DNA of 64,000 nt, taken from assembly GCA_037349105.1 (NCBI GenBank), contig JAYJMM010000106.1:992001-1056000 (forward strand), given 5' to 3'. The DNA comes from Limnomonas spitsbergensis. Taxonomy: Eukaryota; Chlorophyta; Chlorophyceae; Chlamydomonadales. Each line of letters begins with the position of its first letter. Positions within the stretch are counted from its first letter, which is position 1. Position numbers and translations under genes: made by a program. The notes under the pieces were generated by a model that did not search any database, was not told the origin of the DNA, and saw nothing but the letters and a program-made list of their open reading frames with translations. This document shows positions 50 to 61,867 of this stretch, in pieces.

Positions 50-3000
50 GTGCAATATGTGGAGAGGGCAGGGAATGAGCTCAACAGCTTTGCCGCCATT
101 GCTGCGCACGGGCCACCTCCCCAGGTACGGATTTGGTCCCCCAGATCAGGAGTGTTTTGAATATTTGAAAATATTTGAATGAATAAACACCGGCGATTAT
201 AATTGGCTTCCCTCGTGCATGGATGTTTTGTTAATTTACGTTTCTACCCTTGAGTTATAAAAAGGACAACAGCGCTGCATTCCAGCCTGACACTGGCGCT
301 GACAAACGAGCATTAGCAATTCAATTAATCCCTTGCCGGAAACAACATTAATCTTGGAGGAAAGCAATTTGAATCTGCTGTTTCGAGCTTTCAGACATTA
401 TTTCCCCTCTGTTATTGTTGCAGCTCATGTCATGCTTCTTCTTTTGCCATTTGCTGGTTGTTTTTCTTCCGCAGTGTCTGCCATTCTTCATGCCAAGTTC
501 ATCTGTTCCATAGATTCAACTAATGCGTTCTTCCTGCCTTATTCTTCGCTTTCTTTTGTGGTCGCATCAGGCGACTGGAGGTGCGTCCGGCGCGGAGGAC
601 GGCGAGAGGCTGTCAGGAGAGGAGGATGAGGACGACGAGGAGGACAGCAAGAGCACCTCCGCCTTGAACATGGTCAGGTCAGGGCAGCGCTTGCGGCTAC
701 CTGCGGCCAAACCGCTCGGTCGGGGGTTCTCCGTTTGGTCCATTCTGAAGGTGATTAAGGCCTGTAGAACATAGAACCTGAAATAGAACCTAGAACCTGA
801 AGGCAGCTTATCCCTGAAGGTGGCTGAACCCTGAATCCTTGACCTTGAAGGTGGCTTGACCCTGAAAGTGGCTGAATCCTGAAGGTGGCTGAACCCTGAA
901 AGTGGTTTATCTCTAGAGGTGGCTTGACCCTGAAGCTGGCTTGACCCTGAAAGTGGCTGAACCCTGAATCCTTGACCCTGAAGCTGGCTTGACCCTGAAA
1001 GTGGCTGAACCCTGAATCCTTGACCCTGAAGGTGGCTGAACCCTGAAAGTTGCTGAATCCTGGAGGTGGCTGAACCCTGAAGGTGGTTTATCCCTAGAGG
1101 TGACTGAATACTGAAAGTTGCTGCATCCTGGAAGTGGCTGAACCCAGAAGGTGGTCATCCCTAGAGGTGGCTGTACCCTGAATCCTCAACCCTGAAGGTA
1201 GCGAATACTCAACTATGAATGTGCCTGCTTCAGTTTTGTTTAAAGCATGCCAGACCGTCTTTGAAGCAAGCTGGGATGCCCCCTAGTTTAGGGTTAAGTT
1301 TCTTTTTTGAAGTCAGCTGGGATGCCCCCTAGTGGACAGCCAAGAACCTTCTGGGACCCAAATTTTATTCTTAGTGCGCTCTAGCAATCCCGATGATTCT
1401 CTAAAGCGTGACGCGCACCCCGCGACTTGCGCTGTCAAGAAGATGAACTTGAACAGCTGCTAAGAAAATGGGCTTGTGCTGCTAAGGAAATGTACTTGGA
1501 CTAGGACTTTTTAAAGTCAGCTGGGATGCCCTCTAGTGGAGAAGTACTTTGGGGACTTGTGCTGTCCAGAAAATGAACTTGGACAGCCTACCCAGTGCCC
1601 TTGGTATGAAAATGCTCCGTGAGCCCCCTTTGCTCGCCCCCTCGCTTTCAGATGAGGCCAAGGGCTTTGGAATCTTTCACCCCTCTGCCTTAAAGGATCT
1701 CCCAGACCCTTTGCCTGATCTGAAGACGACCCAGTGCGCTTGCCATGCATTCCCTTTGCTCGCCCCCTCGCTTTCAGAACATGATTGGCAAGGACCTGAC
1801 CAAGATCACCATGCCCGCCACCATCAATGAGCCTCTGGACATGTTACAGAGGTGGGTCTTGTGTGAAGGACAGGCTATAGGTGAAGGACATGTTACACAG
1901 GTGAGTGATAGCCTCATGGTGAAGGACATGTTACAGAGGTGGTTACAGCGTGTAAAAGGATCCTCATTCCTTCAAACCCTATTTACGTGCCCTAGGAGTG
2001 GGTTTTTAGGTGAAAGACATGTTGTAGACCTAGGGTGCAGCAAATCTGAGGACCCCTAAACCCTATTTACATGCTCTGAGGGTGGGTTTTAGATGAAGGA
2101 CCTGTTACAGTGGTGGGCACAGCGTGTTAAAGGAACCCTAAACCCTCGTCGCATCCTCCAGGAATTGGATTTAGGTGAAGGACATGCTGCAGAGGTGGGG
2201 TTCAGAAAACCAGGACCCTAATTCGGAGGCGCGCCCCCCACCCATCCCCCCTCGGTTCGCCTTGCAGGCTGGCGGAGACGTTTGAGTACCATGGCCTCGT
2301 GGACAAGGCGGCTGGAGAGCAGACGGACAGCGCCACACGCATGATGTTGGTGGCTGTCTGGCAGCTCAGCTGCTACAACAGCCAGGTATGAAAGCTCACA
2401 CTGTTTAAGAGTTTGGTGTGAATGACATCGCCACACGCATGGCGCACGATGTTGGTGGCAGTCTGGCAGCTTAGCTGCTAGAACAGCCAGGTGTGAAATC
2501 CCACGCTTTTAGAGCTGGGTCTGAATGACAGCGCCACACACATGACGCATGATGTAGATGGCAGTCTGGCAGCTCATCTTCTAGAACAGCCAGGTGTGAA
2601 CGACAGCGCCAAGTGCATGCTATCCGCGGTGGTCGGGCAGGTCAGCTGCTTTTTGATAGCCCAGGCGTGATTCGCATCCCCTCCACCCCTGCAAAGCCCC
2701 TGCTTTTGCCTTTGACTGCTTTGGGGCCTGAGCGTGACTTATCTTCATGCTCTGCCCCTCCCGCTTTTGCTCTGACAGCCTGAGCGTGACTTATCTGAAT
2801 GCTCTGCCCCCCCCCCGCTTTTGTCTTGACAGCCTTAGTACGACCTCCAGACCATCACCCTTTGAATGGCCCCACTGTTGCCTTCAACTGCTTGAGCCTG
2901 AGCGTGCCTTATCTGAACGCTCTGCCTGTCTACTTTGTCTTGACAGCCTAGGCGTGACCTCCAGCCCTCACTTCATTCCCCTGCATGGCCCCACTGTTGC

Positions 3001-6000
3001 CTTCGACTGCTTGAGCCTGAGCGTGCCTTATCTGAATGCTCTGCCTGTCTACTTTGTCTTGACAGCCTAGGCGTGACCTCCAGCCCTCACTTCATTCCCC
3101 TGCATGGCCCCGCTGTTGCCTTCGACTGCTTGAGCCTGAGCGTGCCTTATCTGAATGCTCTGCCCCACCCCCCTGCTTTTGTCTTGACAGCCTTAGTGCG
3201 ACCCCCTGCCCCTCAACCCCCTGCATGGCCTCCGCTTTTTATTTTGAATGCTTGAGCCTGGGACCGACAAACCTGAATGTTGTGCACCCCCCTCCCCCCC
3301 CGCGCTGTCTTGACAGCCTAAGCGTGACCTCAAGCCCTTCACCCCCCTGCATAGCCCTTGCGTTTGCCTTTGACTGCTTGAGCCTGAGCGTGCCTTATCT
3401 GAATGCTCAGCCCCACCCCCCTGCTTTTGTCTTGACAGCCTTAGTGCGACCTCCAGCCCCTCAACCCCCTGCATAGCCCTTGCGTTTGCCTTTGACTGCT
3501 TGAGCCTGAGCGTGACTTACCTGAATGTTGTGCCTGTCCTCTTTGCCTTGACAGCCTAAGCGTGATCTGAAGCCCTTCAACCCCCTGCTGGGGGAGACCT
3601 ACGAGTGGCAGTCACAGGACGGCTCAGTCAAGTGAGTGAGGACACACCTGGAGTGGCAGTGAGTGAGGGCATGCCTGGAGTGGCAGTCCCAGGACGGCTC
3701 AGCAAGGGCAGTGAGGGCACACCTGGGTGGATTTGGGATGAGGTTTTCCCAGGACCGCCCATTCAAGTGAGTGAGGGCACACCTGAGTGGATCTGGGATG
3801 AGGTTTTCCCAGGACCACCCAGTCAAGTGAGTGAGGGCACACCTGGGTGGATCTGGGATGACGTTTTCCCAGGACCGCCCAGTCGAGTGAGTGAGGGCAC
3901 ACCTGGGTGGATCTGGGATGAGGTTTTCCCAGGACCGCCCAGTCGAGTGAGTGAGGGCACACCTGTGTGGATCTGGGATGAGGTTTTCCCAGGACCGCCC
4001 AGTCGAGTGAGTGAGGGCACACCTGGGTGGATCTGGGATGACGTTTTCCCAGGACCACCTAGTCAAGTGAGTGAGGGCACACCTGTGTGGATCTGGGATG
4101 AGGTTTTCCCAGGACCGCCCAGTCGAGTGAGTGAGGGCACACCTGAGTGGATCTGGGATGACATTTTCCCAGGACCGCCCAGTCGAGTGAGTGAGGGCAC
4201 ACCTGGGTGGATCTGGGATGAGGTTTTCCCAGGACCGCTCAGCAAGGGCAGTACGGGCACACCTGAGTGGATTTGGAATGAGGTTTTCCCAGGACAGCTC
4301 AGCAAGGGCAGTACGGGCACACCTGGGTGGATCTGGGATGAGGTTTTCCCAGGACCGCTCAGCAAGGGCAGTACGGGCACACCTGAGTGGATTTGGAATG
4401 AGGTTTTCCCAGGACAGCTCAGCAAGGGCAGTACGGGCACACCTGGGTGGATCTGGGATGAGGTTTTCCCAGGACAGCTCAGCAAGGGCAGTACGGGCAC
4501 ACCTGAGTGGATTTGGAATGAGGTTTTCCCAGGACAGCTCAGCAAGGGCAGTACGGGCACACCTGGGTGGATCTGGGATGAGGTTTTCCCAGGACAGCTC
4601 AGCAAGGGCAGTACGGGCACACCTGGGTGGATCTGGGATGAGGTTTTCCCAGGACAGCTCAGCAAGGGCAGTACGGGCACACCTGGGTGGATCTGGGATG
4701 AGGTTTTCCCAGGACAGCTCAGCAAGGGCAGTACGGGCACACCTGGGTGGATTTGGAATGAGGTTTTCCCAGGACAGCTCAGCAAGGGCAGTACGGGCAC
4801 ACCTGGGTGGATCTGGAATGAGGTTTTCCCAGGACAGCTCAGCAAGGGCAGTACGGGCACACCTGTGTGGATCTGGGATGAGGTTTTCCCAGGACAGCTC
4901 AGCAAGGGCAGTACGGGCACACCTGGGTGGATTTGGGATGACGTTTTCCCAGGACAGCTCAGCAAGGGCAGTACGGGCACACTTTAACGGTGGATGTTCA
5001 TGCGAACCCCTTTGCATGTTGCATTCGCCTTGATTGTTTCCATCATGGCCAACGTACGTCTGATTTCGGTGATCAATGTGACATTGTTTCCCTCATGCCT
5101 CATTCCCTAGGTACCTCTGTGAGCAGGTCAGCCACCACCCGCCGGTATCAGCTTACCATGCACATGGAGGCGGGCCGTCTGGGAAGCCATGGGAGGTGCA
5201 GGTGAGGCCATGCATGGGAGGTGCAGGTGGGACCATGCATGGGAGGTGCAGGTGAGGCCATGCATGGGAGGTGCAGGTGAGGCCATGCATGGGAGGTGCA
5301 GGTGGGACCATGCATGGGAGGTGCATGTGAGACCATGCATGGGAGGTGCATGTGAGACCATGCATGGGAGGTGCAGGTGAGACCATGCATGGGAGGTGCA
5401 GGTGAGACCATGCATGGGAGGTGCAGGTGAGACCATGCATGGGAGGTGCAGGTGAGACCATGCATGGGAGGTGCAGGTGAGACCATGCATGGGAGGTGCA
5501 GGTGAGACCATGCATGGGAGGTGCATGTGAGACCATGCATGGGAGGTGCATGTGAGACCATGCATGGAAGGTGCAGGTGAGACCATGCTTGGGAGGTGCA
5601 GGTGAGACCATGCATGGGAGGTGCAGGTGAGACAATGCATGGGAGGTGCAGGTGAGACCTTGCATGGGAGGTGCAGGTGAGGCCATGCATGGGAGGTGCA
5701 GGTGAGGCCATGCATGGGAGGTGCAGGTGAGACAATGCATGGGAGGTGCAGGTGAGACCATGCATGGGAGGGGCAGGTGAGACCATGCATGGGAGGTGCA
5801 GGTGAGACCATGCATGGGAGGTGCAGGTGAGACCATGCATGGGAGGTGCAGGTGAGGCCATGCATGGGAGGTGCAGGTGAGGCCATGCATGGGAGGTGCA
5901 GGTGGGACCATGCATGGGAGGTGCAGGTGAGACCATGCATGGGAGGTGCAGGTGAGACCATGCATGGGAGGTGCAGGTGAGGCCATGCATGGGAGGTGCA

Positions 6001-9000
6001 GGTGAGGCCATGCATGGGAGGTGCAGGTGGGACCATGCATGGGAGGTGCAGGTGAGACCTTGCATGGGAGGTGCATGGGAGTTCATGCATGGGGCCTGTA
6101 TGCATCATCTGGGCTCCTGATTCTGTGTAACTGCCTCCGCAGGGCGAGTTTGAGATCAAGACCAAGTTCTGGGGCAAGAGCATAGAGCTCATCCTCCTGG
6201 GCTGCGAGTCCCTCAAGCTGCATGAGTTTGACGAGGAGTACAGGTGGGAGAAGGAAATACGGGTGTGTGTGGGGGGGGGGGGGGGCTTCCATCCCTCCTT
6301 GCTGGCTGAGCCCCTACTCCATTTTCCTGTGGGATTTAGGGTGTAGAAAATGCCATAGCAGCCAACGAGGACTACATGAACGTAAGGGGGTGGGCAAGCT
6401 CGATGTTCACTTAAGCTGCACTGGCATTTTCTACGAAGACATCATGCACCTCCTTCCTGTCCTTTATGTTCCACACCTCCACACCCCTACACTTGTGTAA
6501 CAACTTTCAGTCCACACTGTCCAGTCTGCCTTTTCCGTCCATCGTCTCTGATGATTCCTTGAAAACAGTCCGCCCAACCGCCAGCTCGCATCTCCTCCTG
6601 TTCTTAATGATCCGCCAAAGCCCCATTTCCCCTTCAAGGTATACGGACCGGGACTTGGGCGTCTCTTCAACCTGTACTTCCCCAAATCCAACCTGTACTT
6701 CCATGGGCGTTTTTCTCATTCTTATTTGAGGCTAAAAACTTGTGTTTGTTTTTTGGCTACCAGTCCACCTTAAGCAGGCCGCCCCGCGGCCGCAGAAGGC
6801 TTGATTGGGACAAACCTGGACCGGGTTATGATTGGTTGTCTAAGTGGCATGGCTGGCCACAATGGGGCCGCTAGCCAGAGGCCGGAGTGTAGCTGACATG
6901 TAGCTGATTTACGAAAATGAAACACTGGTTTTAACAAAAGTTTTTATCGGCTGCAGGTGGAACCGCGCAACCATCTGCGTCCAGGACATCATCATGGGCA
7001 ACTTCTGGGCCGAGGTGTATGGCAAGGTCAACATTGTGAACCGGAAGACGGGTGAGCCAGGCGGGTGATGCACGTTCGTAATTTATTAGTTAGGAGTGAA
7101 ATTACTTACGGTAGCGGTATGTTTGATGTGCGTAATTAAATTGTAATTAGTTATGTTAAAGATCGAATTATCTGAAGTTTAACATTGTGAACCGGAGGAA
7201 TGGTGAGCTATGCATGTGATCAAAGTTCGTAATTTATTAGTAGGGGTAAAATTAGTTGCGGTTTCAATATGCATGATGTGCGTAATTAATTTGTAATCAG
7301 TAATGTAAAAGATAGCCTGCTCGTTAAAGAAGGGGGAAAAAACAGCATCAAGGAACAGAAAGCATGCCTTATGGGCGCTCGCCAATTCGAGGATTGAGGC
7401 CTTGGAAAATGTGTTTTTCGTGTCCGCAATCTTCTCTATTACATCTGTGCCCGCTCATCCCTGCTGTGGTGCCAGCCAAGAGCAGGTGATGTTGCCGAGC
7501 CCTCCAAATCGCGTCGATCTGCCGGCCCCTTTTCAATGTCGCCCCGGCCCTTACCATCTCCCACACCCGCCCCTTGCTGTGCCACTTGCCGCGAACTAGT
7601 GACGTGGCTGTGATCAAAACTCAAGTGGTGCAGAGGACCACTGGGTGATTCCTGGGCCCTTATGTGTCCCCACTCGCTACCTGATGTATGTGAATCCAGA
7701 CCTCCAAATGAGTCATGTCCGCCTGCCCCTTCTTAATGTCGTCCCCTCTGAATTGGGTGACGTCAAGGACTAGGAGGTGTATAATATAGTGCTGACGTTG
7801 TCCACGCTGGGCATGGGGCCACGGAGTGCGCATCATGCCAGCAGCTTCGGCCGCAGACCAAACTACGGCGGCTTCATCTGCAATGGCCAGGCTGAAGCGC
7901 TGTAGGCCCTGCTCACCGCGGGCCAGCGTGCCGCTATAAATGTGTGCCTTACCAGCTCTCCATGTCAGGATGGTTCGGCTGGTTCTTGCTGGCTGGGCAG
8001 CGTCAGGCTGACCTCCCCTCACGTCTATGCCGCAGCGGTATCGGCATAATATCGTCCCCTCTGAATTGGGTGACGTGGCTGTGTTCAAGACTCAGCTCGT
8101 GCAGAGGACGACTTGTGGGTTTAGATTTGATGTCTGCCTGCCCCTTCTTAATGTCTTCCCCCCCCTCTCAATCAGGTGACGTGGCTGCACTGAACCTTAA
8201 CCCTAAACCCTACCCACCCCCTCTCAATCAGGTGACGTGGCTGCACTGAATCTCAAATCGTGCAAGGGGCGGCAGGCTGACCGCGGCAACTTTGAGGGCA
8301 GCGTGCGCAACGGGGCTGGCAAGGAGGTGTATAAGCTGTTCGGCAGCACTATGGACAAGGTGGGCCAAGTTGAAGAATCCTTGTGTACAAGCCGTCACAC
8401 CTAAAAGGTGGATGGTTCGTCTTAACCCCAAAGTCCTTAGAGACCCCATTTCATGCAGTCGCCACTCGCCAGTTTGCCACACTTCCTCGGCTCATTGGCT
8501 CATCGCTCATTTTAACCCTACAATCTGACAGACCTCGTTTGAGATGGTTGATTCACTCTTGGGGCTCATACTTTGATTAAATCCTGGGCTCAGTAAGAAC
8601 AGTGTCAAACAAGATCCCAACCTGGGGATCCCAGCCCTTATGACTTTCTTCAACACCTCCCTCATCACCTGAGTATGAACATTTGCGTACAAGGTCCCGA
8701 CCTTCAGGATTGCTGGTTTGTTTGGATTTAATTGATGATTTGTTTAAATTGGATTGATGTTTGCTGAAACACCGAGGTCTGAATGCAGTGGTCGCCACAC
8801 TTGTGTGGATGGTTTGTTTCAGCCCTGGACAATTAAGCGGAGCACCCCTCACACTTCCACACCGCGGCGCGCAGGTGTACGCCCAACTGACACCGGAGGC
8901 CGCGGCTGCTAGGGGAGGCAGTACAGAGCCGGTGCTGATGTGGCAGAAGGACCCTTACCCAGAGGACAGCGAAGTGCAGTACAATTTCACAAAGTGAGCT

Positions 9001-23063: not shown

Positions 23064-26000
23064 GCCACTGCATCTGCATCAGATGCCACCAACCCGGTTG
23101 CGTCACTGGTGTCCAGCGCGTCTGCAACAGCGGCATCCAGCCCAGCTGCGTCACTGGTTTCCAGCGCGTCTGCAACCGAGGCATTCAGCCAGGCTGGACC
23201 TAGGAACACCCCCCTCAGCACCGCCGTTGAGGCCCCCAACGAGGATGTTGATGACACCTCGGTTGACGGCGCAGGGCCCACGGGGCCTCTCACCACCCAG
23301 GAGATCTACGCCAGGCAAGTTTTCCCACACTTGTGCAAACAATAAATGTACTGCAGGCAGCCATATCATGACCCTACAGAATATAACAGCCTCGTCCACG
23401 GCCTCTATCCAGCCATTCATCGCCATAGATTGTGACCGTAATCCAGCAGGTGGACCTTAATGTCCTCCTACCTGCCTCATGCACAAAGCCCAGGGTGCAC
23501 AAGCATGTGCCCATATCGAAACCCACAAATGTCACAAATATCAAATGTACCCCCCCTGCCCCCCTGCCCCTCACACACCACCCTCTGGCACGATTTCTGA
23601 ATTGCAGGTACCCCTATCGCAACCCGCAGACATCCCCCCTCCACCCTGCCCCTCACACTCACACCACCCTCTGGCACGATTTCTTAATTGCAGGTACCCC
23701 TATCGCAACCCGCAGACATCCCCCCTCCACCCTGCCCCTCACACTCACACAACCCGCGGCGCAATTTCTCAATAGCAGGTACCCCTATCGCAACCAGCAG
23801 ACATCCCCCCTCCACCCTGCCCCTCACACTCACACAACCCGCGGCGCAATTTCTCAATAGCAGGTACCCCTATCGCAACCCGCAGACATCCCCCCTCCAC
23901 CCTGCCCCTCACACTCACACAACCCGCGGCGCAATTTCTCAATAGCAGGTACCCTCTATCGCAACCCCACAGATAACCCCCCTGCCCCCTGCCCCTCAAA
24001 CTCACACTCCACGCGGTACAATTTCTCAATTGCTGGTACTGCTATTGGAAATTAGGAACCCGACAGACATCCCCCCTCCCCCCTGCTCCTTAGACTCACA
24101 TAACCTGCGGCGAAATTTCTCAATAGCAGGTACCCTCTATCGCAACCCCACAGACATTACCCCCCCAAGCTGCCCCCTGCCCCTCACACTCCACGCGGCA
24201 CCATTTATCAATCGCAGGTACCCCTATCGCAACCCCACAGACATCGCCGCCTTCGTCCGCGACCGCTCTCCCGCTGGCGACCCTGAGGCCGTCCTGGCAG
24301 CGATTGATGAGTTCTCAGTTGCCTACCCAATGTCAGTACTTATTATAGTTTCACGGTATCCACCCTGTCGCCTTCAGAGAAAGGGCCTTATTGGGGCCGT
24401 GGGCCGGACGGCATGCTAAAAAAGACAGTCGTCTTTACAGCAGCGTCGTATCCACCCTGTCGCCTTAAGAGAAAGGGCCTTATTGGGGCCGTGGGCCGGA
24501 CGGCAAGATAAAAAGACAGTCGTCTTTACAGCAGCGTCGTATCCACCCTGTAGCCTTTAGAGAAAGGGCCTTATTGGGGCCGTGGGCCGGACGGCAAGAT
24601 AAAAAGACAGTCGTCTTTACAGCAGCGTCGTATCCACCCTGTCGCCTTCAGAGAAAGGGCCTTATTGGGGCCGTGGGCCGGACGGCAAGCTAAAAAAGAC
24701 AGTCGTCTTTACAGCAGCGTCGTATCCACCCTGTCGCCTTCAGAGAAAGGGCCCGAGGGGACTGTATGGCAAGCTAGAAATGTCAGCTATCAGGGGAGAC
24801 CTCTGGAAATGGGGTGTCCCAAAGGCAACCACCCTGTAGCCTTCAGAGAAAGGGCTAGAGTGGACCAGATGGCTTGACATGTCAGCCATAAGGGAAGGTG
24901 CTGGTTAGGGGGAATCCCATTGGATCCTGATGGATCTTGATGGATCTGATAATATGTGATCAATCAATGTCAATGGGACATGTTGGATCTCATGGGATCC
25001 TATGGATGCTATTGAACCTCATTGGATCCTGATGGATCTAATTGGATCTCACGGGATCCCAATGGATCTAATTGGGTCCCGTTGGAAGTTTAAGGAGATG
25101 TCGTTTCTGACCGGCCACATTTTCAGCTGAGGGCCCCAATGCTACATTGTGTACACAATTCTGAAGGTTGCAGATCTAGATCCTGCAATCTTGCTTAGTC
25201 CAAACCCTGGACTATGCATCCTAAACCTTAAATTTCGAGCTTCGATATTTAAAGGTTCTCCGGGGACCAAATGCTTGCCCTTTTTTTTCGAATCTACTGT
25301 TGACCTTTTTCCTCCCTTGGCTTGGACAAGAGACTCGACTTTTAACCCCTTACATGCATTTTATATTTTTATATTTACCCACATCCTGCCGTTCCGTCCT
25401 GTTCATGAACAAGATGGGTCCTGGGGCACTGCACCTGAACCCCCTTTTGTGTACCTGTATTCATGTTTTAATCCCATCCACCCCTACCATCCAGTTCAGG
25501 TACAGAATCGGCCTCGAGAAGGGTCCTATTTCGGAAGAAGAGTGCGGGGCCCTTAATGTAATCTTAGTTTCCACCATTTACCTCCTTTGGACCTCCTTTA
25601 CCCTTTTATGCACTTACATCTTGCCCCTACCCTGTTCAGGTACAAGATTGATCCAGTGAGGGGGGAAGTTTTCTGTTACACCCCCATCCTGCTCCACCAC
25701 CCTGTTCAGGTGCGAGTATCCCGTATATGTCTAACCCTTCTCTAAACATCACATCCCGCCCTTCTGCCTGTTCAGGTATAAGATTGGTCCCGAGAAGGGG
25801 GCTATATTGGACAGCCTTGTCCGCACATTGCAGCCGGACCTGGTGGTGGAGCTGGGGTCCTTCGTTGGATATAGTGCGGTAAGGATCGAGCACAAAAAGC
25901 AATGACGAAGAAATCCTGACACAGGAACCAGTACAGGAGGAAGAAACCCAATAAATATGGGCACTTAAGGTAGGGTACCATTGTTAAACCAGGGTTAAAC

Positions 26001-51700: not shown

Positions 51701-54700
51701 ACCTTAAAACCTACACCCTCAACCCTAATCCTTAAACATGGACAGGGTCCTTGTGGTGGGTGGCCCAGCAAATATGAATCCAATAGTTTTGCGTCGTGGC
51801 CATTTGCGTGCTACACTTGGCTGAGCGCAGCTCTCGTGAGCCTGCTTAAACCCAATTTCCTAAGCCCTAAACCCTAAACTCGAACCCTGAACCTTTCAAA
51901 TATCCAGACTCTTTATCCCTGAACCTTTCTTATTCCAAGCCCTTATCCCCAAAACCTTACTCATTTACATTTGAGTTAGAGTCCCTCGCATGGCTCGGAT
52001 CTGCGTGCGAGCCAAACCAGTCAGGTTTCAAAAATGCCATCGTTGCAAGTGAAATCCGAAATCGCATTGTTTTTTTCAATCGGACCTGCGCGCACAGGTC
52101 AACTCCACCACCAGCTTCTTAAAATCGCCTTGGCCACAGCTAGGGCCCCTCCTGGCGGGCCTGCCATCACAGCTGTACAACACTTGGTTCATCGCGCTGA
52201 GTCCTGTGATAACCAACCCGATTGCGATGGGTTTGAACCAAGTCAAACGCGAAGACTTGTTACTGCAACAGGTGCGAAATTCAAATTTCAAATCCCTGAT
52301 CCTGCTCCAGATAGATCACTCTTGACTTGGATTCTCTGGTGTGAATATGTGTGAACAAACGAGAAGTATCAAACTGCCAGCTAGGTGCAACCACGTTCTG
52401 CCATCCACGGTGGCAGCGGATCTAGATCCAATGCAAGTGCCCAAAGATCCAGATAGATCCAACTAGGGGTTCCTCACGTGGTCTTTAGGAAAATATGAAC
52501 CCTGAGGGAGATTCGCTGAGTGAGACAGCCTAGTTCTGTCTGGTGCCCCCTTGCCTCCGCTTCTGTCTTCCGTGCTTGTTTAAATGTTCACCCGTGTCCT
52601 CTGTGTTTGTGCTGCTTTATGCCCCGTTTTGGGCGTTTTTTGTTTTGGTTCTTGAGACTTGTTTCCCCCGGCTCGCTCTGCCTGTTCCTTTTGCAAAAGG
52701 CTGTGGGTGGTTGCGTTAACTTTGTAACAACAACTCTGCCCTCCCCTTTTCTTCTGTAGGCCAGTCAGGGGTCAGGGCCTGCACGGGCATGGCAACCATG
52801 CTGGTTGCCATGCAGCTCTAAATTGAGACCTCATACCGTAGAGTAGCCTTGCCTTCCCGCTACGTTAATGTTTCGGAGGGGTGCGGGAAGTGCGTGAGGG
52901 AAGTATAACATAACTATTAAAGGTCTGAGAACGTCGATTTTGACTTGAAACGTCGTCTTCACCCAAAATGTGCAAGCTAAGGACGACCAGTTCCTGGAGA
53001 TTAGTATGTGTGTGGAGGGAGACAGGCGGGAGGGGAGGGCACTAGAGATGCTGCTGGCAATGGTAGCTGTCTGGTTTGAATGAAAGTGGGGTATCACCAA
53101 TTGCATTGTGCGAGCTAAGGATGACCACTTTCCGGAGATTAGTATGTATGTACCCGCCCCCCCCCCCCCCGGCAGGCCGTTACGCGTCGATTATTATTAG
53201 TTGTATGTGTTGACAAGGAAAACCCAATCCACGAGTGCTGGAAGCACGCCCTGCCCTTCATCATGTCCCTTGGCAGCCTGTCTTAATGCTTGCTAGACGC
53301 ATCATCGGCCTCTACTCATCATAGAACCAGCCACATATCTTTCAGCTTATTTCAATCCTACCCCCCCCCCCCACTCTCCCCCCCCCCGCCAGGCTGGTGC
53401 TCCCCCCTGCGACTTTGGCTTGGTTGCTGCAGCTGTTGCAACAAGGCTCCAAATACGCCCACGCCATCCTCGCCAAGGTGAGCATCATACAGCTTCCAGG
53501 AGTGAAACCAGGAGTCAGAAGCCAGGTGTGAAGCCAGGTGTGAAATTAGGTGTGAAGCCAGGTGTGAAGCCAGGTGTGAAGCCAGCAGCATCGTGGGTAT
53601 TGAATTTTATTCCGCACCTGGTCATCCCCATCTTCTGACCAGGGGCTCCTGACTATTTCCCCTCTCCTATTTTGTGTGGCGTGTTGCCCTTGACATGAAT
53701 GCACTGCTGTCGACTTTAATCCTGTACCAAGTCATCCCCAACAACATCACTGAGGGGCAACAGCACCTCTGACTATTTACCCCCCCTCTCTGTCCCTATG
53801 CGGTGCTCTGCCCCCGAACCAGGTTCTACAGAAGACCCTGTTGCTGAGCTTGGACCTAGTCATCCCCAGCCGTACCCAGGGGTAGCAGCACATATTTTCT
53901 AACTATTTGCCCTCCCTACGTCTCATGCGTATCGTTACCCTTTATCCAGATTCCCCAACCTGCCCTTCTGCAACCCGCTGTCCCCGAACCAGGTTCCTCA
54001 GAAGACTCTGTTGTCGACGGGAAGTCTGGACCTGGTCATCCCCAGCAACACGGAAGGGTCTCGGCTGCAGAGGGCTCTGCCCAAGTGCCGACACAAAGAT
54101 GCCCCTGCGCTCTCATGCGATGCTGCAGACGGGGAAGAAAAACGGGGGGGAGGGGCATTCAATGCCAGGCATTGATGTGACAGGAACGGGCGTCAACCGG
54201 TGGTAACTAAAGCATGTTAGGGTGCGTTAAGATAGGGGGAGAGGAGAAAGGAAGGGGGAAAGGGAAAATAAATGGGGACAGGGGAAAGAAAGGGGGGGGG
54301 GGGAATGGGAGTTGGAGAGGGAAAAGATAGAGAGTGGATAGGAAACGAAAAGAAGGGGTGGGGGGTGGGTCGAACGGGGGAAAGGAAAAAGATGGGGGGG
54401 TGCAGCCAGTCATTTCCAGGGAAATTCAAATACTTTTACCAGCAAGGCCCCATTACTGCGTCCGTGATTTCCGAACACAGTTGGATTGCAATATAATGGT
54501 GTAGACAGGTACTCTTATGAGTGCATGATGCACCCTGAACCCTTAACCCTAGGCCCTAGACACTCAACCCTAACCCTGAACCCCAAATCCTTAACCCTGA
54601 GCCCTGTACACTTAACCTCCACCCCTAACCCTAAGCCCTTTACACTTTAGACTTTACTCTGACCCTAAGCGCATAACCCTAGGCCCTGAACTCTGAAGCC

Positions 54701-57700
54701 TAACCCTAAGCCCTAGACCCTGAACCCTAACCCCTTAGTGCTAAACCCTAACCCTGGACCCTATGCACTGACGACCAATCTGGTACAGGCCAAAGCCCCG
54801 CCCTATTTACTTGTGTTAGGGCGAAAGTCCCTCTCTCAAAACCTATCCCTTAATCCTACTTAATTTTGAGGCACTGCCGTCCTTCTCAAACACAACAAAA
54901 TCGCCTGATCCCTATCATGACTTCAAAATTTGAATTTCAAACTGATAGTGTTCAAATCTTTGCATCCACCGAAAACCCGCTCCAACCAAACCCGAAAAAC
55001 CCCTTCGTACGGCGAGGCAAAAGCTTAACTGACGACGTTCGTAAAAAAAACGAATTTCAATTTGGATTATGTTTGGATCCCTGCCTGTGCCCTCCCTCTG
55101 CCTCAGGAAGCTGGCGTTGACCTGGCCAACATCATTGAGACCGAGGACTTTTACTTGCCCATCCGGAGACTGACCAGCGGCCCGCTCGGCCCTCAACCTG
55201 GCTCGACAGCTCGACGGATCCAAGAGATTCTCCGCTACCGCTCCGGAGGACCTGCTGAGAGATCGACCGGCACAAACTGCTTCCAGCAAGATGCGAGGCC
55301 TTCATAAAAGAAAGAGTAAAACTACGGCCCACAGGGCTGTGAAGTTTTGTTAAGTTTTTGCAGTCCAACAAAGCATCACATTTGATGCGTGGGATATGGG
55401 CCGGATAACGGTACAGGCACATGATACTGTGAGGGCTTAGTGTGGCATGGGCCGAGGCCAATGCCATGCCGTTCCCATCGTCTATCGCCTTTGCCTTGAT
55501 CTGGACTAAAAACAACTTGAATATAGCACATGGATGCATCCTTGGAACGTAAGATGAGACGTGAAACACCGGAAGCTTCGGCTTAATCCCAAACCCCAAA
55601 CCCTAACCCCCAAACCTGAATCCCCAAAGCCTGAATCCCAAACCCTAAACCCCAAACCCAAATCTATTAACCCTATAGCATGAACACTACATCCTAAACC
55701 CTAATATTTATAGGAATCTCTGACGCGCAGCGTTAGTCCGAGGGACTGCGCAGCGCTTTATTGTACTGCCTACTCTTAGAAGCACTGCCCGCATTTTGCA
55801 CCGCTCGCAGGCTGTCGGCGGTGTGGCACGTGGGGGTGCTGCATTTGGGACGGCGGCTGCGATTGAAATGCCGACGGCCCAGGAGGTGGAGGGGATCATG
55901 AACGCCACGGGGCTATCAACACTGCGCCGCCTGTTAAGGATTGGGAGGAAGGGGAGTGGGACGGGGGTGAAGGAGGGTAGAAACCTAAGCCCTAAACCCT
56001 AAAGCATTGACAATGAAGGAGGTGGATGAGATCCTGAATAACACGGGGCTATCAACACTGCGCCGCCTGTTAAGGATTGGGAGGAAGGGGAGTGGGACGG
56101 GGGTGAAGGAGGGTAGAAACCTAAGCCCTAAACCCTAAAGCATTGACAATGAAGGAGGTGGATGAGATCCTGAATAACACGGGGCTATCAACACTGCGCC
56201 GCCTGTTAATCATTGGGAGGAAGGGGAGTGGGACGGGGGTGAAGGAGGGTAGAAACCTAAGCCCTAAACCCTAAAGCATTGACAATGAAGGAGGTGGATG
56301 AGATCCTGAATAACACGGGGCTATCAACACTGCGCCGCCTGTTAATCATTGGGAGGAAGGGGAGTGGGACGGGGTGAAGGAGGGTAGAAACCTAAGCCCT
56401 AAACCCTAAAGCATTGACAATGAAGGAGGTGGATGAGATCCTGAATAACACGGGGCTATCAACACTGCGCCGCCTGTTAAGGATTGGGAGGAAGGGGAGT
56501 GGGACGGGGGTGAAGGAGGGTAGAAACCTAAGCCCTAAACCCTAAAGCATTGACAATGAAGGAGGTGGATGAGATCCTGAATAACACGGGGCTATCAACA
56601 CTGCGCCGCCTAGCAAGGATTAGGAGGAAAAGGAATGGGGGAGGTAGAAGTGGGAGATTGACGGTGGAGGTGCGGCAGAGGAGGAGGACGGGAGAACCCT
56701 TAACCCAAAAACTTTAACCCTGAACTCTTAGGCGAGGAGGAGGTGGAGGAGATCCTGAACACCACGGGCCTATCAACACTTTGTCGCCTGGTGAGGAGGG
56801 GGTGTGTGGAGCAAGGGGGTGAGGAGGGGAGAACTCTACACCCCAAACCCCAAACCTTAAACCCTTAGGGGAGGAGGTGGAGGAGATCCTGAACAACACG
56901 GGCCTATCTACACTTTGTTTCCTGATGAGGAAGGGGGAGGGGGGGTGAGTGGAGCAAGGGGATGACTGAGTGGAGTGGGGGAGGACGAGTAGGAGGAGGA
57001 GGAAGTGGGGTGGGGGAGGAGGAGGAGGAGGAGGAGGAGGAGGAGGAGGAGGAGGAGGAGGAGGAGGAGGAGGAAGTGGGGGAGGAGGAGAGGTACCAAC
57101 CATCAGGTACAAGAGTAGAACAGTGCAACAGTACAGCAGTACAACGGGAGGCGTATATACAGTGCAAGAAAGCACATTGTGAAGGTGTACTACATGATGT
57201 TTGTGGTACATGCATATTTCATCACCAAGGCCTCATGAGGTACTCTGTGCATTTATGTCTCATGATGAAGGAGTTCCTGGAGGACCGGCAGATGCTGCTG
57301 AGGGGCCTGGCACACCCCTTTGCAATGGACGTGAGTTCAAAGCAGGGCAGAGGGGCAGTGAGCATGTGTTCAGGGCAGGGCAGAGGGACTTGCTTTTGTT
57401 TTGTGGGGCTGAGGGTTCGGGGTTTTGGGTTAACCGGTTCAGACGACCTCCTGACTTTGTAAGGCTTGATCCCAGGCTGCCTTTGCGAGAGTCTGATAGA
57501 CTATAGCGGTAGCAATGTCAAGTGTGTCCGTTTTTTGTTACTAGGCCACCTTACGCCCGTCCCACGCCCGTCAAAGGCCCGATTGGGACCATACCTAGTC
57601 CGGCCTAGGGCTGGTGGCCAAAGCAACGGGGCTGGCCACAAACGGGGCCTGCTGACATGTAGCTGAGTCTCAAAGACAGAAACACAGGCCTTAACCCATG

Positions 57701-60700
57701 CTTCGGCCAAAATGGGCGGCTGCGTTCCACACACGCGTTATTGGCGTGTCTATTTTTGATTCATCTATTTGGTAGACCTGCGGGAGGGGTGCGTAGCAAC
57801 AACGCGACGTGGGCTCAACCTTAACTTTTGCACAGCTTTCTGAATCCTCTCTCTTTATTTCACAATTTGAAACTATGTTGATAGTGCCTGAATCCTTTTC
57901 CCCCCTCTTTCTTTCTATTCCTGAACCCTGACTACCGGTATTTGTATATTTCTTTGAATCTTCTCTCCTTGTGCAATTTTGCTGTCCCTATGCTTGCCCT
58001 TGTTCAATAAAGGACAATGCTAACTGTGTCAATGCTGCACCATACCACTTGTGCACAGCCTCTGTTATTGTGTGACAATACAATCTCTTGGGGGGGCGGG
58101 AGGAGGGGTACCCCCCACGCGCTCATGTTGGGGTCCCAGCAGATAAACTGTCATTGTGAAGTGTAACAGGAATGTACCGAAGAGGTACATATTTTGGGAG
58201 ATGGACTCTCTCGACATCATACAATCGAAACTTTCCAAATTGTATGGGCATCGTCTTGAAACGATTCCACCTAGCCACTCCTGTGCAATTGTTCTACTTC
58301 TGTTGTGTTAGGAAATAAAAAAACACCTGTGAAATTTAATATGCAAACAAGTACTTGGATAAATGCTGTTTTCATTTGTTATTTTCTTGTCGTGCAACAA
58401 CAGGGCATGGGCACCTTTCCAGAGCAGGCGGGGGAAACGACCTCTGGAGCTTTCCTCAAGACGTTAGGGGGCGTATCAGTTAGCGGGACAAACCTGTACA
58501 AGTGAGTGGTGCATTTGTTGTGGGACCACCGTGTGCAACCCTGTGCAGTTTTTTGAAGTTTTTACAGGCCAGCAGAGCATCACATTTGATGCATAGGACA
58601 TGTGCCCGTAAACTGGTTCAAGCACTAAATACGCTAACACAGCGAAAGGAAACCAGCGACCCCCCTCACTGGGCTAGCAACCAACACACGGCCACCAAGC
58701 AAGTGGGGAGAGTTGGCACCCGGTTGCAGGTTGGGTTTGTGTCTGTTTGTGACCTTTTGCTGTTTTAGCCAATCACACTATGAAATCCTGTCCCCATACA
58801 CTCAGAATCTAGCTCCATCTTTGACAATTATTTGGTGCGTATGTAGAAGTACAAGTCTGTACTGGTGCATATGTAGAAGTACAAGCCTGTACTGGTGCAT
58901 ATGCAGAAGTACAAGCCTGTACTGGTGCATATGCAGAAGTACAAGCCTGTACTGGTGCATATGCAGAAGTACACGCCTGTACTGGTGCATATGCAGAAGT
59001 ACAAGCATGTACTGGTGTATAGTTAGCGATACAAGCCTGTACACTGCAGTGACGCATATTTCGCGGTACAGACCTGTAGACGTCTGTGGTGTGTATTAAG
59101 CGATACCAATATGTACAACTGTGTGGTGCATATTAAGCAGGCCTGAGCTGTACACGTGAGTGGTGCATATTTAGCGATTCACACCTGTGGACGTGAGTGG
59201 TGCCCATAAAGCATTGCTAGCATGTTCACGTGAGAGGTGCATTTTAAACGGTATTGACGTCATTAATACCGCTTCACGAATGTTGACACGTCACCTTTGG
59301 TGTAGGAATCCATGTGTGCGAGCTCACTAAAAATGTAACGCGCGCATTTATTGACACAATCCCTGTCTTCTGTGTGGGTTTGTGATTTTGTTTAAGGCTC
59401 CTCCTCCTCCTCCTCCTCCTCCTCCTCCTCCTCCTCCTCCTCCTCCTCCTCCTTCTTTTCCCTAATCGCCCATCCCACCGCTGTCCCCATAATCCTCGCA
59501 TCCCGCCACCGACCTAGCCCTCTCCTTGCTATTGACTCCAATTCATCACACTCCACTGACACTGTCTTCAATACGCCCCTCTCTCATATTTCCCCGCAGG
59601 CAGTGGCCCAGGGTGAGACAGTCCTGCTGTACCCTGGAGGCGCGCGAGAGGGCGTGAGCAAGCGCAAGGGGGAGAAGCACAAGATTATGTGGCCAGAGAG
59701 GCAGGTCCAGGGATGTCGAAGGGGACTCTGGGACGCTAAATTCTAAACCCTCAGCCCTAGACTATGGATGTGGGAGGCTAAATCCTAAACCCTCAACCCT
59801 TAGCTGTAAGCTAGGCAGGGCTGGGGCTGGGGGAGGATACTCTGGGCTAGATAGGCAGGTATAGGTCCGGGTGAGGGGACTGTGAGCCAGAGAGGCAGGT
59901 CTAAGGCTGGGGGAGGGGACTGTGGAAAACTGAAAACCCTCAACCCCAAACCCACAATCCTACAGACAGTTTTTTCAGAGTAGCGGCATGTCTTGGGTGT
60001 CCGGTGTAGGATTGAGCCTGTATAGGATGTTGCACGTAGCGTGTATTGGATTTCGCACGTAGCTTGTTCAGGATTTCGCACGTAGCTTGTTCAGGATTTC
60101 GCGCGTAGCTTGTATAGGAATTTGGCAAGCCGGTAAAGGACGTGGGCATGTCTTGGGTGTAGGGCGTAGGTTAAAACATGTATAGGGTTTGAAGTCCGGC
60201 GTCCATATAACCCAAAGACAAAACACTCAACCCTGAAAATTCGCAGGTAGGCCTTTGTCAGGATGGTGGCACGTTTGAATGGCGGGGCCAAGCTCACTGA
60301 GCACAGGAATTTGGGCCCGGCGTCCATTTAAACCGGACAACTTTCTCCTAAACCTCAAAAATCCGGCAGGCAGGAGTTTGTGAGGACGGCGGCAAGTTCC
60401 AGGTGTAGGGCTTAGGCAAACCGTGCATTGAACCTGGGGCCCGGCGTCCATTTAAGCCAGGCCCCCCCCTGAACCCTGCAAAACCTGCTGGCAGGAGTTT
60501 GTGTGGATGGCGGCACGTTTTGGAACGACTGTCATCCCATTTGCGGCAATTGGCGCAGAAGACAGTATGGATATTGTTGCGGATGCACAGGACCTGATGG
60601 CGGCCCCTTTCGTGGGCCCGACGCTGCGGACGAGGCTGGAGGCAGATGCTGCTACAAGACCCAAGGTACGAAATGCCCTGAACCGTATAACCCATTCACT

Positions 60701-61867
60701 TACCCTATACCTGAACCCTATACCCAAAGGTAGAAAATGTTATGGACTCTAATCCCCGAAGTATAGGCAAATCCGGTCACGCATCATCTGATTACCCGTT
60801 TTGCTAATTGACTGTTTCACATTTTGACCGGCCGTGGTTGAACTGGTGGAAATGAGTTGTTGTCTTTTAGCGTGTTGTTGTTGTGTAGGGAAGTTGTTGT
60901 TTTGCAACAATCTTACCATCACCGCCTAGAGCCTGTTTTAGAGGGGGCCAGGCAGAGTGAACCAGGGGAACACCAGCAACAATCAGAAGTAGGGAAATAG
61001 TTAAGGTGAGGAGCCTGATGGAACCAGTGGACCGTGCAGAGCAAAGTTCAGGGTTAAGGATTTATGCCGTCAGGTCTAAGACCGGGTTAAGGGTTTAGGG
61101 TTATGCTCTCAGTAATGAGACCGGGTTAAGGGTTTTAGGGTTATGCTCTCAGTTACACTGTATCGGCCTTTTTGTTACCATTCCTTTAAGTTTGTATGTA
61201 CCATACCCGTATCCGTACCGTACCGTTTGACAGCACCGTATTCACATTCTGGTTAATGCTACTTTCCAGGCGCGCCGTGGTGTCAAGGCGCTGGACCCCG
61301 CACGCAGAGGATCCCGAAGACATCATGACGGACTACCTGCCCGGCCTCATCGTACCCAAGATATTGGCGCACTTATACTTCCTGTTCTGTCGCCCGATTG
61401 AAACGAGGCCGGATATGGCGGGGTCCCGCAACGAGTGTGACGACGTCAGCAAGTCTAATTGGCGCAACTTCAATGAACCTTAACCATGAACCCTAGACCC
61501 TTTGACAGCATCCTGCAGCGAGTGCGACGATGTCAGCAAGCTTTGTTGCAGCTGCACGCTCACAGCTACAAGACCCTAAAGTCTAAGCCAGTAAGCCCTG
61601 TACCCTGCAGCTTGACAGCCACATCTGCAAATACCCTTAACCCTGAACCCTGAACCCTGAATATTGCAGCTGCATGCCCACATCTGTAACAATCCAAACC
61701 CTGAACCCTGAATTCTCCAATTGTACGCCCATATCCGCAATGAGGTGGAGGAGGGACTGAGCTACCTGCTACGCAAGCGGCTGTCCGACCCGTACGCAGA
61801 CTTGGGCAAGAGGTTAATGTACGGTATGAGGCGGGCGGCTCGGGGAAGCGGTAGGCGCCCATGTTAG
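48702..61867 (+). CDS. Phytyl ester synthase-like acyltransferase (PES/ELT family)
   Basis: Plastid-type enzyme with an alpha/beta-hydrolase half and an acyltransferase half; relatives esterify phytol or diacylglycerol with acyl groups. Exons, first seven joined in phase: 48702-49027, 49247-49314, 49887-50104, 51524-51652, 52098-52271, 53218-53279, 53393-53477; then about 53993-54105, from 55107, 55811-55932 or a later copy, to 57330, 58404-58501, 59600-59704, 60495-60665, 61270-61444 and 61721-61867. Key parts: a basic Ser/Pro-rich N-terminus (possible transit peptide), GAPPCIFSPAV, VMLYLPDIDGTG, nucleophile motif LLGKSLGGLLAL (GxSxG), MKEFLEDRQMLLRGLAHPF, VLLYPGGAREG, EFVWMAARFGTTVIPFAAIG, MTDYLPGLIVPKILAHLYF, EEGLSYLLRKR. 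Several late junctions do not resolve (frameshift near 54105, phase clash before 61270, no AG before 61721), so decay, microexons or sequence error remain open. The first exon is the least certain. Confidence 0.75.
50145..50370 (-). repeat. Dispersed repeat family B, in acyltransferase intron
   Basis: Reverse-orientation units: cgatacggcacaatgcggca, ggttaatgcggattgtacca, caaggtatacgatacggtgc. Three to four units. Confidence 0.75.
50378..50720 (-). mobile_element. TAGCTG-tail fragment and SINE-like copy
   Basis: Begins with ctacaattcaactacctcat and ggcctgatgcagcaagccta; after about 60 bases comes the SINE-like body: ggcctgccatgctacttatg, aggcaggtccaggtttggtc, cccaatcgggcctgcggggt. A second partial body (aggcaaggtttggtcgccat) follows at about 50664. 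Confidence 0.6.
50817..51190 (-). mobile_element. Retroelement terminus and TAGCTG array
   Basis: Terminus gtcaatgacccctctgggcc ... ctcggccgcgtaggcgtcca at 50817-50880 with its purine-rich continuation to about 50940, then a clean array of gtagctgaaat at 51090-51180 (about seven units). All within the intron 50105-51523. Confidence 0.65.
51653..52097 (+). repeat. Exon-end copy and telomere-like DNA in intron
   Basis: The exon end gtggacagggtcatttgggt and its flank recur as catggacagggtccttgtgg (51737) followed by matching aaatatgaatccaatag. Around it lie CCCTAAACCCTTAACC-type repeats (51685-51740 and 51850-51960). Confidence 0.7.
52272..53217. repeat. Intron with direct duplication
   Basis: A phrase gtgcaagctaaggacgacca + gttcctggagattagtatgt (52969) recurs as gtgcgagctaaggatgacca + ctttccggagattagtatgt (53106), about 137 bases apart. 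A poly-C run is at 53156-53170. No exon seen. Confidence 0.6.
53478..53992 (+). repeat. Minisatellite and three copies of the next exon's start
   Basis: A 13-base unit (caggtgtgaagc) repeats about six times at 53520-53585. Then decayed copies of the exon at 53993 (cctggtcatccccagcaaca): ccgcacctggtcatccccat (53613), ctgtaccaagtcatccccaa (53722) and a longer one with ccaggttctacagaagaccc + tgttgctgagcttggaccta (53819). All are followed by the same ctctgactatttgccct-like flank. Confidence 0.78.
54230..54790. repeat. G-rich tract and telomere-like repeat
   Basis: 54230-54400 is purine-rich with a long G run (54290-54303). 54535-54770 is a run of about thirty loose CCCTAAA / CCCTGAA / CCCTTAA units (accctaagccctagaccctg). 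No open frame. Confidence 0.85.
55336..55425 (+). repeat. Dispersed repeat family E, copy 1
   Basis: aagtttttgcagtccaacaa + agcatcacatttgatgcgtg matches aagtttttacaggccagcag + agcatcacatttgatgcata at 58557-58600, 3.2 kb away in the same gene. Confidence 0.75.
55575..55715. repeat. Telomere-like repeat
   Basis: About 130 bases of CCCTAAACCCCAAA-type units (aaaccctaacccccaaacct). Confidence 0.85.
55811..56925 (+). repeat. Tandem array of a coding exon, 136-bp unit
   Basis: The exon coding AIEMPTAQEVEGIMNATG + LSTLRRL (55811-55932) is followed by five near-identical 136-bp units (starting 56009, 56145, 56281, 56416 and 56552), each coding MKEVDEILNNTGLSTLRRL, then two diverged copies (56725-56792, EEVEEILNTTGLSTLCRL; 56868-56923, EEVEEILNNTGLSTLCFL). 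Each 136-bp unit also contains aagccctaaaccctaaagc. The copy at 56725 has the best acceptor (ctcttag) and donor (CTG|GTGAGG). Which copy is spliced in is unknown. Confidence 0.9.
57003..57085. repeat. GGA trinucleotide repeat
   Basis: An uninterrupted run of gaggaggagg units of about 55 bases with flanking variants, in an intron. It gives spurious poly-Glu, poly-Gly and poly-Pro frames. Confidence 0.95.
57540..57690 (+). mobile_element. SINE-like repeat copy
   Basis: Contains ggcccgattgggaccatacc, tagtccggcctagggctggt, ggggctggccacaaacgggg and gacatgtagctgagtctcaa. In an acyltransferase intron; the remainder of 57691-58403 shows no feature. Confidence 0.7.
58502..59235 (+). repeat. Array of exon end plus donor, with 30-bp core
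   Basis: The exon ends acaaacctgtacaa|gtgagtgg followed by tgcat. Copies include a 30-bp minisatellite (tgcatatgcagaagtacaag + cctgtactgg, about six units, 58840-59020) and looser ones to 59235 (gagctgtacacgtgagtggt, cacctgtggacgtgagtggt, atgttcacgtgagaggtgca). Several restore GTGAGTGG. Family E copy 2 lies at 58547-58632. Confidence 0.85.
59399..59456. repeat. CTC trinucleotide repeat
   Basis: Uninterrupted ctcctcctcc run of about 55 bases, the complement of the GGA run at 57003, in the same gene. Confidence 0.95.
59705..60494 (+). repeat. Copies of both flanking exon edges in one intron
   Basis: 5' side: the exon end ccagagaggcag|gtcca recurs as ctagataggcaggtatagg (59846) and ccagagaggcaggtctaagg (59887). 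3' side: the next exon's start cag|gagtttgtgtggatggcg is foreshadowed by caggtaggcctttgtcagga + tggtggcacg (60244) and caggagtttgtgaggacggc (60370), with ggcgtccatttaaacc-type DNA between. 60000-60180 holds a degenerate cgcacgtagcttgttcagga array. Confidence 0.85.
60666..61269. other. Intron, telomere-like fragments only
   Basis: gggttaagggtttagggtta occurs twice near 61083 and 61125 within duplicated phrases (tatgctctcagtaatgagac / tatgctctcagttacactg). A short exon of unknown place must lie here if the flanking phases are right. Confidence 0.5.
61445..61720 (+). repeat. Copies of both exon edges around the last acyltransferase intron
   Basis: The exon end aacgagtgtgacgacgtcag recurs as agcgagtgcgacgatgtcag (61519). 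The last exon's start (ttgtacgcccatatccgcaa) is foreshadowed by tgcagctgcacgctcacagc (61546), tgcagcttgacagccacatc (61606) and tgcagctgcatgcccacatc (61667). The three copies have a TGCAG acceptor; the real exon is preceded by CCAA. Confidence 0.82.

What the first reader, a model, noticed from the sequence alone, without database searches (positions are those of the whole stretch)
50..61867. Exon-edge copying: intron arrays reiterate the neighbouring exon boundary and splice site
In three plus-strand genes, about twenty introns contain tandem or serial copies of 10-70 bases of the adjoining exon together with its splice site. Copies of 5' splice regions lie downstream of the true donor, and copies of 3' splice regions lie upstream of the true acceptor, as expected if the boundary itself were repeatedly duplicated and only the outermost copy stayed in use. 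Units range from 25 to 136 bp and from two to about thirty-five copies. I know of no named element type that does this. It looks like a general mode of intron growth in this genome and leaves many decoy splice sites.
Basis: partly seen in the sequence, partly recalled or inferred. Interest (0 to 1): 0.88.

Follow-up and report, generated by a model that had tools for sequence, protein, structure and literature searches.

The report
Minisatellites copying exon edges in introns
In an algal genome packed with short tandem repeats, many introns hold repeated copies of the neighbouring exon's edge together with its splice site; this looks like ordinary repeat growth spilling over exon borders, a structure already described in lancelets, but it is common here and leaves many decoy splice sites.

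Summary
In 47 introns (26 in the window, 21 gene-finder models elsewhere), the last or first 40 exon bases recur in the adjoining intron at 26 of 94 edges, against 1 of 94 antisense, 4 of 4,324 in other introns and 1 of 129 deeper exon pieces. Further introns of one outside gene gave 5 of 14 edges, antisense 0 of 14. Boundary-touching repeat families cover 37% of the 47 introns' DNA.

Repeat density is about flat across boundary and intron and fades within 80-100 exon bases. Array ends fit random placement, decoy GT/AG decay like other sequence, and position-blind duplication gives a similar boundary share, though family counts are 1.5-2 times a uniform expectation. A named precedent exists: amphioxus "mirages" (PMC3087553, PMC3902484). 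By size and contig number the genome is probably the snow alga Limnomonas spitsbergensis, which has published full-length transcripts. I file it as a new occurrence of mirages, driven by general minisatellite growth; it is uneven between genes.

The parts
50..10609 (+). Gene 1, oxysterol-binding protein, 13 exons; 12 introns examined
   Evidence: Pfam PF01237 E 2.2e-113; alignment to C. reinhardtii protein; exons 50-124 and 571-750 from the gene finder
1832..2209 (+). Donor-edge family: 20 nt of exon 1778-1851 plus splice site, copied into intron 1852-2267
2326..2650 (+). Donor-edge family: 60 nt of exon 2268-2385, units about 75-103 bp
2653..3588 (+). Acceptor-edge family ahead of exon 3555-3631, unit about 120 bp, 34 exon nt
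3603..4982 (+). Donor-edge array, 60-bp unit, about 21.6 copies, after exon 3555-3631; 8 of 22 aligned decoys keep GT
5188..6102 (+). Donor-edge array, 25-bp unit, about 36 copies; 22 of 23 aligned decoys keep GT
7024..7241 (+). Donor-edge copy, 28 exon nt, lag 151
7734..8256 (+). Acceptor-edge copies ahead of exon 8232-8359
10089..10259 (+). Donor-edge copy, 51 exon nt, after exon 9999-10139
23064..31774 (+). Gene 2, O-methyltransferase, 8 exons, 7 introns examined
   Evidence: Pfam PF01596 E 1.9e-9; open frame through all joins
23353..24274 (+). Acceptor-edge array, 85-bp unit, about 8 copies, ahead of exon 24218-24331
25374..25811 (+). Acceptor-edge copies ahead of exon 25776-25878
26710..27164 (+). 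Donor-edge copies after exon 26698-26763
27781..28642 (+). Acceptor-edge copies ahead of exon 28581-28712, 62 exon nt
28693..29828 (+). Donor-edge family after exon 28581-28712
29861..30050 (+). Acceptor-edge copy ahead of exon 29991-30064, 60 exon nt
30018..30438 (+). Donor-edge copies after exon 29991-30064
30535..30938 (+). Acceptor-edge copies ahead of exon 30903-30988
49887..61812 (+). Gene 3, phytyl-ester-synthase-like; 7 introns used
   Evidence: start and end from the gene finder
51636..51783 (+). Donor-edge copy, 17 exon nt
53602..54059 (+). Acceptor-edge copies ahead of the exon at 53993
58478..59253 (+). Donor-edge array, 30-bp unit
59691..59934 (+). Donor-edge copies after exon 59600-59704
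60236..60520 (+). Acceptor-edge copies ahead of exon 60495-60665. (This list shows 21 of the 25 window families; four weak ones, two at 9579, one at 53992 and one at 57330, are left out.)

Best explanation
These are minisatellites that happen to straddle exon borders. Short stretches (roughly 15-200 bp) are duplicated in tandem anywhere in this genome, and arrays grow by further slippage or unequal exchange (inferred). A duplication inside an exon changes the protein and is lost. One inside an intron is neutral. One across a border is also neutral as long as splicing joins the outermost copies, because a full exon and a full splice site remain; its surplus copies become intron and decay (shown: their splice dinucleotides decay at the same rate as the rest). 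Introns therefore lengthen, and a large share of the growth carries exon-edge sequence simply because introns are short targets with two borders. Which copy is spliced is inferred from reading frame and homologues, not from transcripts.
For: About flat repeat profile through border and intron, fading within 80-100 nt of exon (also seen in the looser set). Exon overhang divided by unit length is compatible with uniform (KS p 0.42, 31 of 35 values). 55 interior families against 35 boundary families; 15 introns have only interior ones. Decoy GT/AG intact in 117 of 146 copies, 118.2 expected from copy identity. Unit lengths show no preference for multiples of three (remainder 0, 1, 2: 13, 11, 11). 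Position-blind simulation gives a boundary share of 0.34-0.68 over five settings, observed 0.39. Tandem arrays also fill tiles without predicted genes (L002, L003, L005, L006, L009): tandem repeats cover 67,102 of 130,000 bases in the first 13 fetched loci.
Against: 35 boundary families against 17.3 (present intron lengths) or 24.0 (collapsed lengths) expected under uniform placement, a 1.5-2-fold excess. I explain it by shorter ancestral introns and by exon copies decaying more slowly, but neither was measured. The simulation depends on chosen parameters and gives a higher repeat fraction (0.66-0.85) than observed (0.55). The uniformity test has low power and needs at least 5 exon bases to see a family. 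Copies within one array are not independent.
Confidence: 0.77

Rival explanations
1. Boundary-directed duplication: something tied to splicing or transcription at exon-intron junctions (for example breaks or RNA-DNA hybrids there) preferentially duplicates the junction, and introns grow from their edges.
For: 1.5-2-fold more boundary-touching families than uniform placement predicts; 24 of 47 introns have one.
Against: No peak at the border in the repeat profile; 15 introns have interior repeats only; exon overhang varies from 9 to 85 nt with no fixed landmark; position-blind simulation suffices.
Confidence: 0.13
2. Intron birth by tandem duplication of exon sequence holding AGGT (Rogers model): these introns began as exon duplications, so exon-edge copies are remnants of their origin.
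For: Some acceptor edges here read AG|GT, for example the exon starts at 24218, 25776 and 26698; the model is accepted for other organisms (PMC3443670, passages).
Against: Copied units carry intron-side sequence as well (for example the pyrimidine-rich part of the 85-bp unit at 23.6-24.2 kb), so an intron already existed; 8 of 47 introns have separate donor and acceptor families. Presence or absence of these introns in relatives was not examined.
Confidence: 0.05
3. Introner-like mobile elements that bring their own splice sites.
For: None found.
Against: Only 2 of 1,081 intron pairs share sequence and none at matching ends; exon edges match other introns in 4 of 4,324 comparisons; the copies match the local exon.
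Confidence: 0.01
4. Assembly artefact from long-read errors.
For: None direct; reads were not available. The probable source paper gives a k-mer genome size of 233 Mb against a 260 Mb assembly (PMC11228838, passages), so some array lengths may be uncertain.
Against: Copies differ from each other in ordered ways (two unit types in 3687-4982) and the same structure recurs in contigs C95, C106 and C110. The probable source assembly used reads with an L50 of 32.9 kb.
Confidence: 0.04

Closest known systems
Amphioxus 'mirages' (Adh3, globin, troponin C, PGBD5 genes)
   Same: Minisatellite-like tandem duplications spanning exon-intron boundaries, at both 5' and 3' boundaries, units 10-160 bp, many decoys keeping splice signals (PMC3087553, passages; PMC3902484, one passage)
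   Different: Described there in single animal genes; here in a green alga and in 20 to 24 of 47 introns sampled. Splicing and length differences between alleles were tested by those authors and not here.
Intron gain by tandem genomic duplication (Rogers AGGT model; PMC3443670, passages)
   Same: Tandem duplication that creates spare splice sites
   Different: Here existing introns lengthen; no new intron was shown
Internal tandem repeats altering human gene structure (PMC2812944, seen in a search listing only)
   Same: Tandem repeats inside genes that touch exon structure
   Different: Known to me only from the listing and the start of its abstract
Introner elements (recalled, no call)
   Same: Multiply intron sequence in some algae
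   Different: Dispersed copies with shared ends; here copies are local and match the local exon

Membership tests
Mirage (boundary-spanning minisatellite) | Tandem or serial copies that span an exon-intron boundary | tested here: met
   35 boundary-touching families in 47 introns; shuffled mean about 0.7
Mirage (boundary-spanning minisatellite) | Both 5' and 3' boundaries affected | tested here: met
   17 donor, 18 acceptor families
Mirage (boundary-spanning minisatellite) | Unit length about 10-160 bp | tested here: met
   Median 93, range 15-207, smallest lag taken as unit; 3 of 35 lie above 160
Mirage (boundary-spanning minisatellite) | Many copies keep splice signals | tested here: met
   117 of 146 aligned copies
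Mirage (boundary-spanning minisatellite) | Regular splicing is not disturbed | not testable with these tools
   Needs transcripts; open frames and homologues only suggest it
Mirage (boundary-spanning minisatellite) | Copy-number variation between alleles | not testable with these tools
   One assembly only
Introner elements | Same sequence in many unrelated introns, ends at splice sites | tested here: not met
   2 of 1,081 pairs, 0 at matching ends
Rogers tandem-duplication intron gain | Intron absent before an exonic AGGT duplication | not tested
   No relative's gene structure was compared
   Flat profile; family counts are 1.5-2-fold above uniform but within the range of a position-blind simulation

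The most novel reading that the evidence does not exclude
Duplication is coupled to splice junctions in this alga, giving the 1.5-2-fold excess of boundary families, and its spliceosome follows an 'outermost copy' rule that site strength does not explain: at 10 of 28 boundaries with decoys at least one decoy scores as high as the site in use, yet decoys decay neutrally.
Probability: 0.13. Interest if true: 0.82.

Novelty: new member of a known kind. Interest (0 to 1): 0.55.

Why it matters
It suggests that mirages, known from single lancelet genes, can be a sizeable part of intron growth in a genome. In the 47 introns, repeat families of all kinds cover 55% of bases and boundary-touching ones 37%. 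Reported mean intron length is 788 bp for L. spitsbergensis and 229 bp for C. reinhardtii (table in PMC11247165, passages). The arrays are also a natural experiment on splice-site choice: near-identical decoys beside the site in use, with published full-length transcripts to read the outcome. Gene finders can be misled: mine called edge copies as exons at 2590-2640, 10189-10236 and 27987-28046.

Tried and rejected
A first self-trained gene finder collapsed on a tandem array; masking arrays fixed it. A first manual model put the donor of one gene-1 exon at 672; the relative's protein and the gene finder place it at 750, so the row for that intron (16 of 36 edges at p below 0.01 in all) is wrong and one search replaces it. 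Searches used 59 unfiltered gene-finder introns, some split by decoy copies called as exons (15 donor and 13 acceptor edges, 20 of 59 introns); they agree in pattern but I rest.

Left out: gene-3 introns without two confirmed exons (52272-53392, 54097-57270, 61445-61744); uncertain end or tiny-exon introns of L007, L013 and L015; and all of L001, L004, L008, L010, L011, L012 and L014. In one search those gave L001 0 of 3, L008 0 of 4, L010 0 of 5, L012 0 of 2, L014 1 donor and 1 acceptor edge among 3; L004 and L011 had no intron that passed the filter. L007 had 1 donor edge among 7, in an intron I then left out. L013 was not chosen blind: I had seen exon-like units in its arrays before curating it. 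Considered and rejected: introners, chance, known RNA families (none at the gathering threshold). A genome-wide look with a protein-kinase family was asked 17 times and never answered.

Full report
WHERE THIS IS. The Limnomonas spitsbergensis assembly (Arctic snow alga, Chlamydomonadales) is reported as 260,248,090 bp in 124 contigs, 54.15% GC (PMC11228838: outline, passages and sections 18, 19, 20, 24). I take the genome to be that species; this is an inference from size and contig number.

THE GENES. Splice joins were placed by open frame, consensus sites and homologues. The first gene-1 model gives a 424-residue protein covering positions 7-368 of the 368-position oxysterol-binding profile (E 2.2e-113). 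Aligned to a C. reinhardtii protein (53% identity) it has gaps at four places; of the ten joins covered, only the last (10139/10478) lies in a gapped stretch. Gene 2 gives a 356-residue open frame with an O-methyltransferase domain over residues 120-257. Gene 3 matches green-algal hydrolase/acyltransferases; two of its exons used (51524-51652, 58404-58501) were not among the printed tblastn matches: the first rests on the Pfam match, frame and the gene finder, the second on frame and the gene finder. The gene finder made here returned all eight gene-2 exons and, apart from the first and last exon ends, those of gene 1; these exons were among its training seeds, so this is not independent support. 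The 21 introns outside the window are gene-finder models: L015 holds a protein kinase (PF00069, E 9.1e-55) and L007 an acyltransferase (E 1.9e-5), while the L013 and L016 pieces had no Pfam match. No transcripts were available, so 'donor' and 'acceptor' in use are inferred throughout.

THE OBSERVATION. I compared the 40 exon bases next to each boundary (exon bases only) with the adjoining intron for 47 introns: gene 1 (12), gene 2 (7), gene 3 (7), L007 (7), L013 (4), L015 (10). At score 15 or more, 12 of 47 donor edges and 14 of 47 acceptor edges have a copy. Controls at the same score: antisense of the same intron 1 of 94; other introns 4 of 4,324; exon pieces at least 60 bases from the edge 1 of 129. 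Over thresholds 13 to 18 the counts run from 30 to 20 of 94, other introns from 41 to 1 of 4,324. Twenty of 47 introns are affected: 13 of 26 in the window, 7 of 21 outside (L013 4 of 4, L015 3 of 10, L007 0 of 7). L013 was picked after I had seen exon-like units in its arrays, so L015 and L007 are the fairer outside sample. At the same threshold, seven further introns of the L013 gene, read from the later fetched L016, gave 5 of 14 edges in 4 introns, antisense 0 of 14; some of their exons score low in the gene finder (0 to 4, the last -1). In the looser gene-finder set, 0 of 14 introns in L001, L008, L010 and L012 were affected. So the phenomenon is real and not limited to the window, but uneven.

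SIZE OF THE EFFECT. Grouping local self-matches into families gives 90 families: 17 touching a donor, 18 an acceptor, 55 interior. 24 introns have a boundary family, 15 only interior ones, 8 none. Boundary families cover 15,219 of 41,039 intron bases (37%), all families 22,698 (55%); one L013 intron alone contributes 4,051 of the 15,219. Shuffled introns give about 0.3, 0.3 and 6 families at the same threshold, and none at score 20, where 14, 16 and 44 real ones remain. In six of the seven further introns there were 6 boundary and 7 interior families (the 85-base last one was not run).

IS THE BOUNDARY SPECIAL? Three tests say no, one count says perhaps. First, the fraction of 40-base pieces with a local copy is about flat: 0.34-0.40 at the donor edge and 0.35-0.44 through the next 400 bases; 0.28-0.34 at the acceptor edge, a dip to 0.19 just inside, then 0.30-0.47. 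On the exon side it is 0.13 for pieces starting 60 bases in, 0.05-0.07 at 80, 0-0.03 at 100 and zero from 120. Second, if junctions were the landmark, the exon part of each unit should have a fixed length; it runs from 9 to 85 bases, and overhang over unit length fits a uniform spread (31 of 35 values, KS p 0.42; four values above 1, where the smallest lag understates the unit, were left out). Third, decoy splice dinucleotides are intact in 117 of 146 aligned copies, 118.2 expected from the copies' overall identity, so they are neither protected nor removed. Unit lengths are not biased to multiples of three (13, 11, 11). Against this, uniform placement predicts 17.3 boundary families with present lengths or 24.0 with repeats collapsed, and 35 are seen. 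A simulation of position-blind tandem duplication with exonic events discarded gives a boundary share of 0.34-0.68 over five settings with starting introns of median 200-400 bp; the observed share is 0.39. Its repeat fractions (0.66-0.85) exceed the observed 0.55, so it shows sufficiency and is not a fit.

BACKGROUND PROCESS. The sampled genome is rich in tandem arrays: 67,102 of 130,000 bases in the first 13 fetched loci, some of them adjoining tiles, including a 28-bp unit running through about 20.6 kb and a 76-bp unit with about 212 copies. Boundary arrays look like the part of this that overlaps exon edges.

DECOYS. 40 donor and 10 acceptor copies score at least as high as the site in use. 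They are concentrated: 25 of the 40 lie in one L013 array and 8 in the 5188-6102 array, and 7 of the 10 in another L013 array; by boundary it is 6 of 14 donors and 4 of 14 acceptors. That such arrays are tolerated suggests that splice choice rests on more than local site strength, or that mis-splicing is low or harmless; transcripts would settle it.

PRIOR WORK. [quoted passage not shown] PMC3902484 (one passage) adds PGBD5 and mentions troponin C. The original amphioxus Adh paper I did not see. The tandem-duplication route to new introns is reviewed in PMC3443670 (passages). Searches for exon-edge arrays in green algae or this species listed no such report; they cover only an open-licence library and I judged most papers by listing. 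The passages and sections I read of the L. spitsbergensis paper do not mention such arrays.

VERDICT. A real and well-controlled pattern; a named kind of structure in a new lineage and at high density in some genes; best explained by general minisatellite growth plus selection on exons and not by a boundary-copying mechanism.

Noticed in passing
window 55881-56629: 136-bp array, 5.5 copies at 97% match, containing exon-like sequence; homologues do not cover this part of gene 3, so the exon in use is unknown.
   Followed up: partly
window 61445-61760: Conserved residues of the last gene-3 exon begin at about 61721 with no AG directly before them, while upstream copies do have AG; the acceptor in use is unclear.
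   Followed up: no
L016:320-2443, window 54532-54763, 55582-55705, 61633-61661: Telomere-like CCCTAAA/TTTAGGG-type motifs scattered in introns, and a 12-bp TAGGGTTAAGGG array of about 177 copies inside a contig.
   Followed up: no
window 50105-51523, 6244-6956, 57331-58403: The interior of the first intron shares stretches (190 bp at 75%, 97 bp at 77%) with the other two; the only cross-intron similarity among 1,081 pairs. Probably a dispersed element.
   Followed up: partly
window 11329-13513, 16809-17957, 32412-33350; L010: Open frames that look related to each other by eye, like pieces of a retroelement; the L010 protein reads like a reverse transcriptase to me, but the Pfam scan of a piece of it found nothing.
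   Followed up: partly
window 23073-23190: 48-bp in-frame tandem repeat inside the first gene-2 exon: duplication tolerated in coding sequence when in frame.
   Followed up: no
window 34950-37147: Long minus-strand open frames in a stretch without local duplications; not identified.
   Followed up: no
L005-L007: One 28-bp unit fills about 20.6 kb of contig C75.
   Followed up: no
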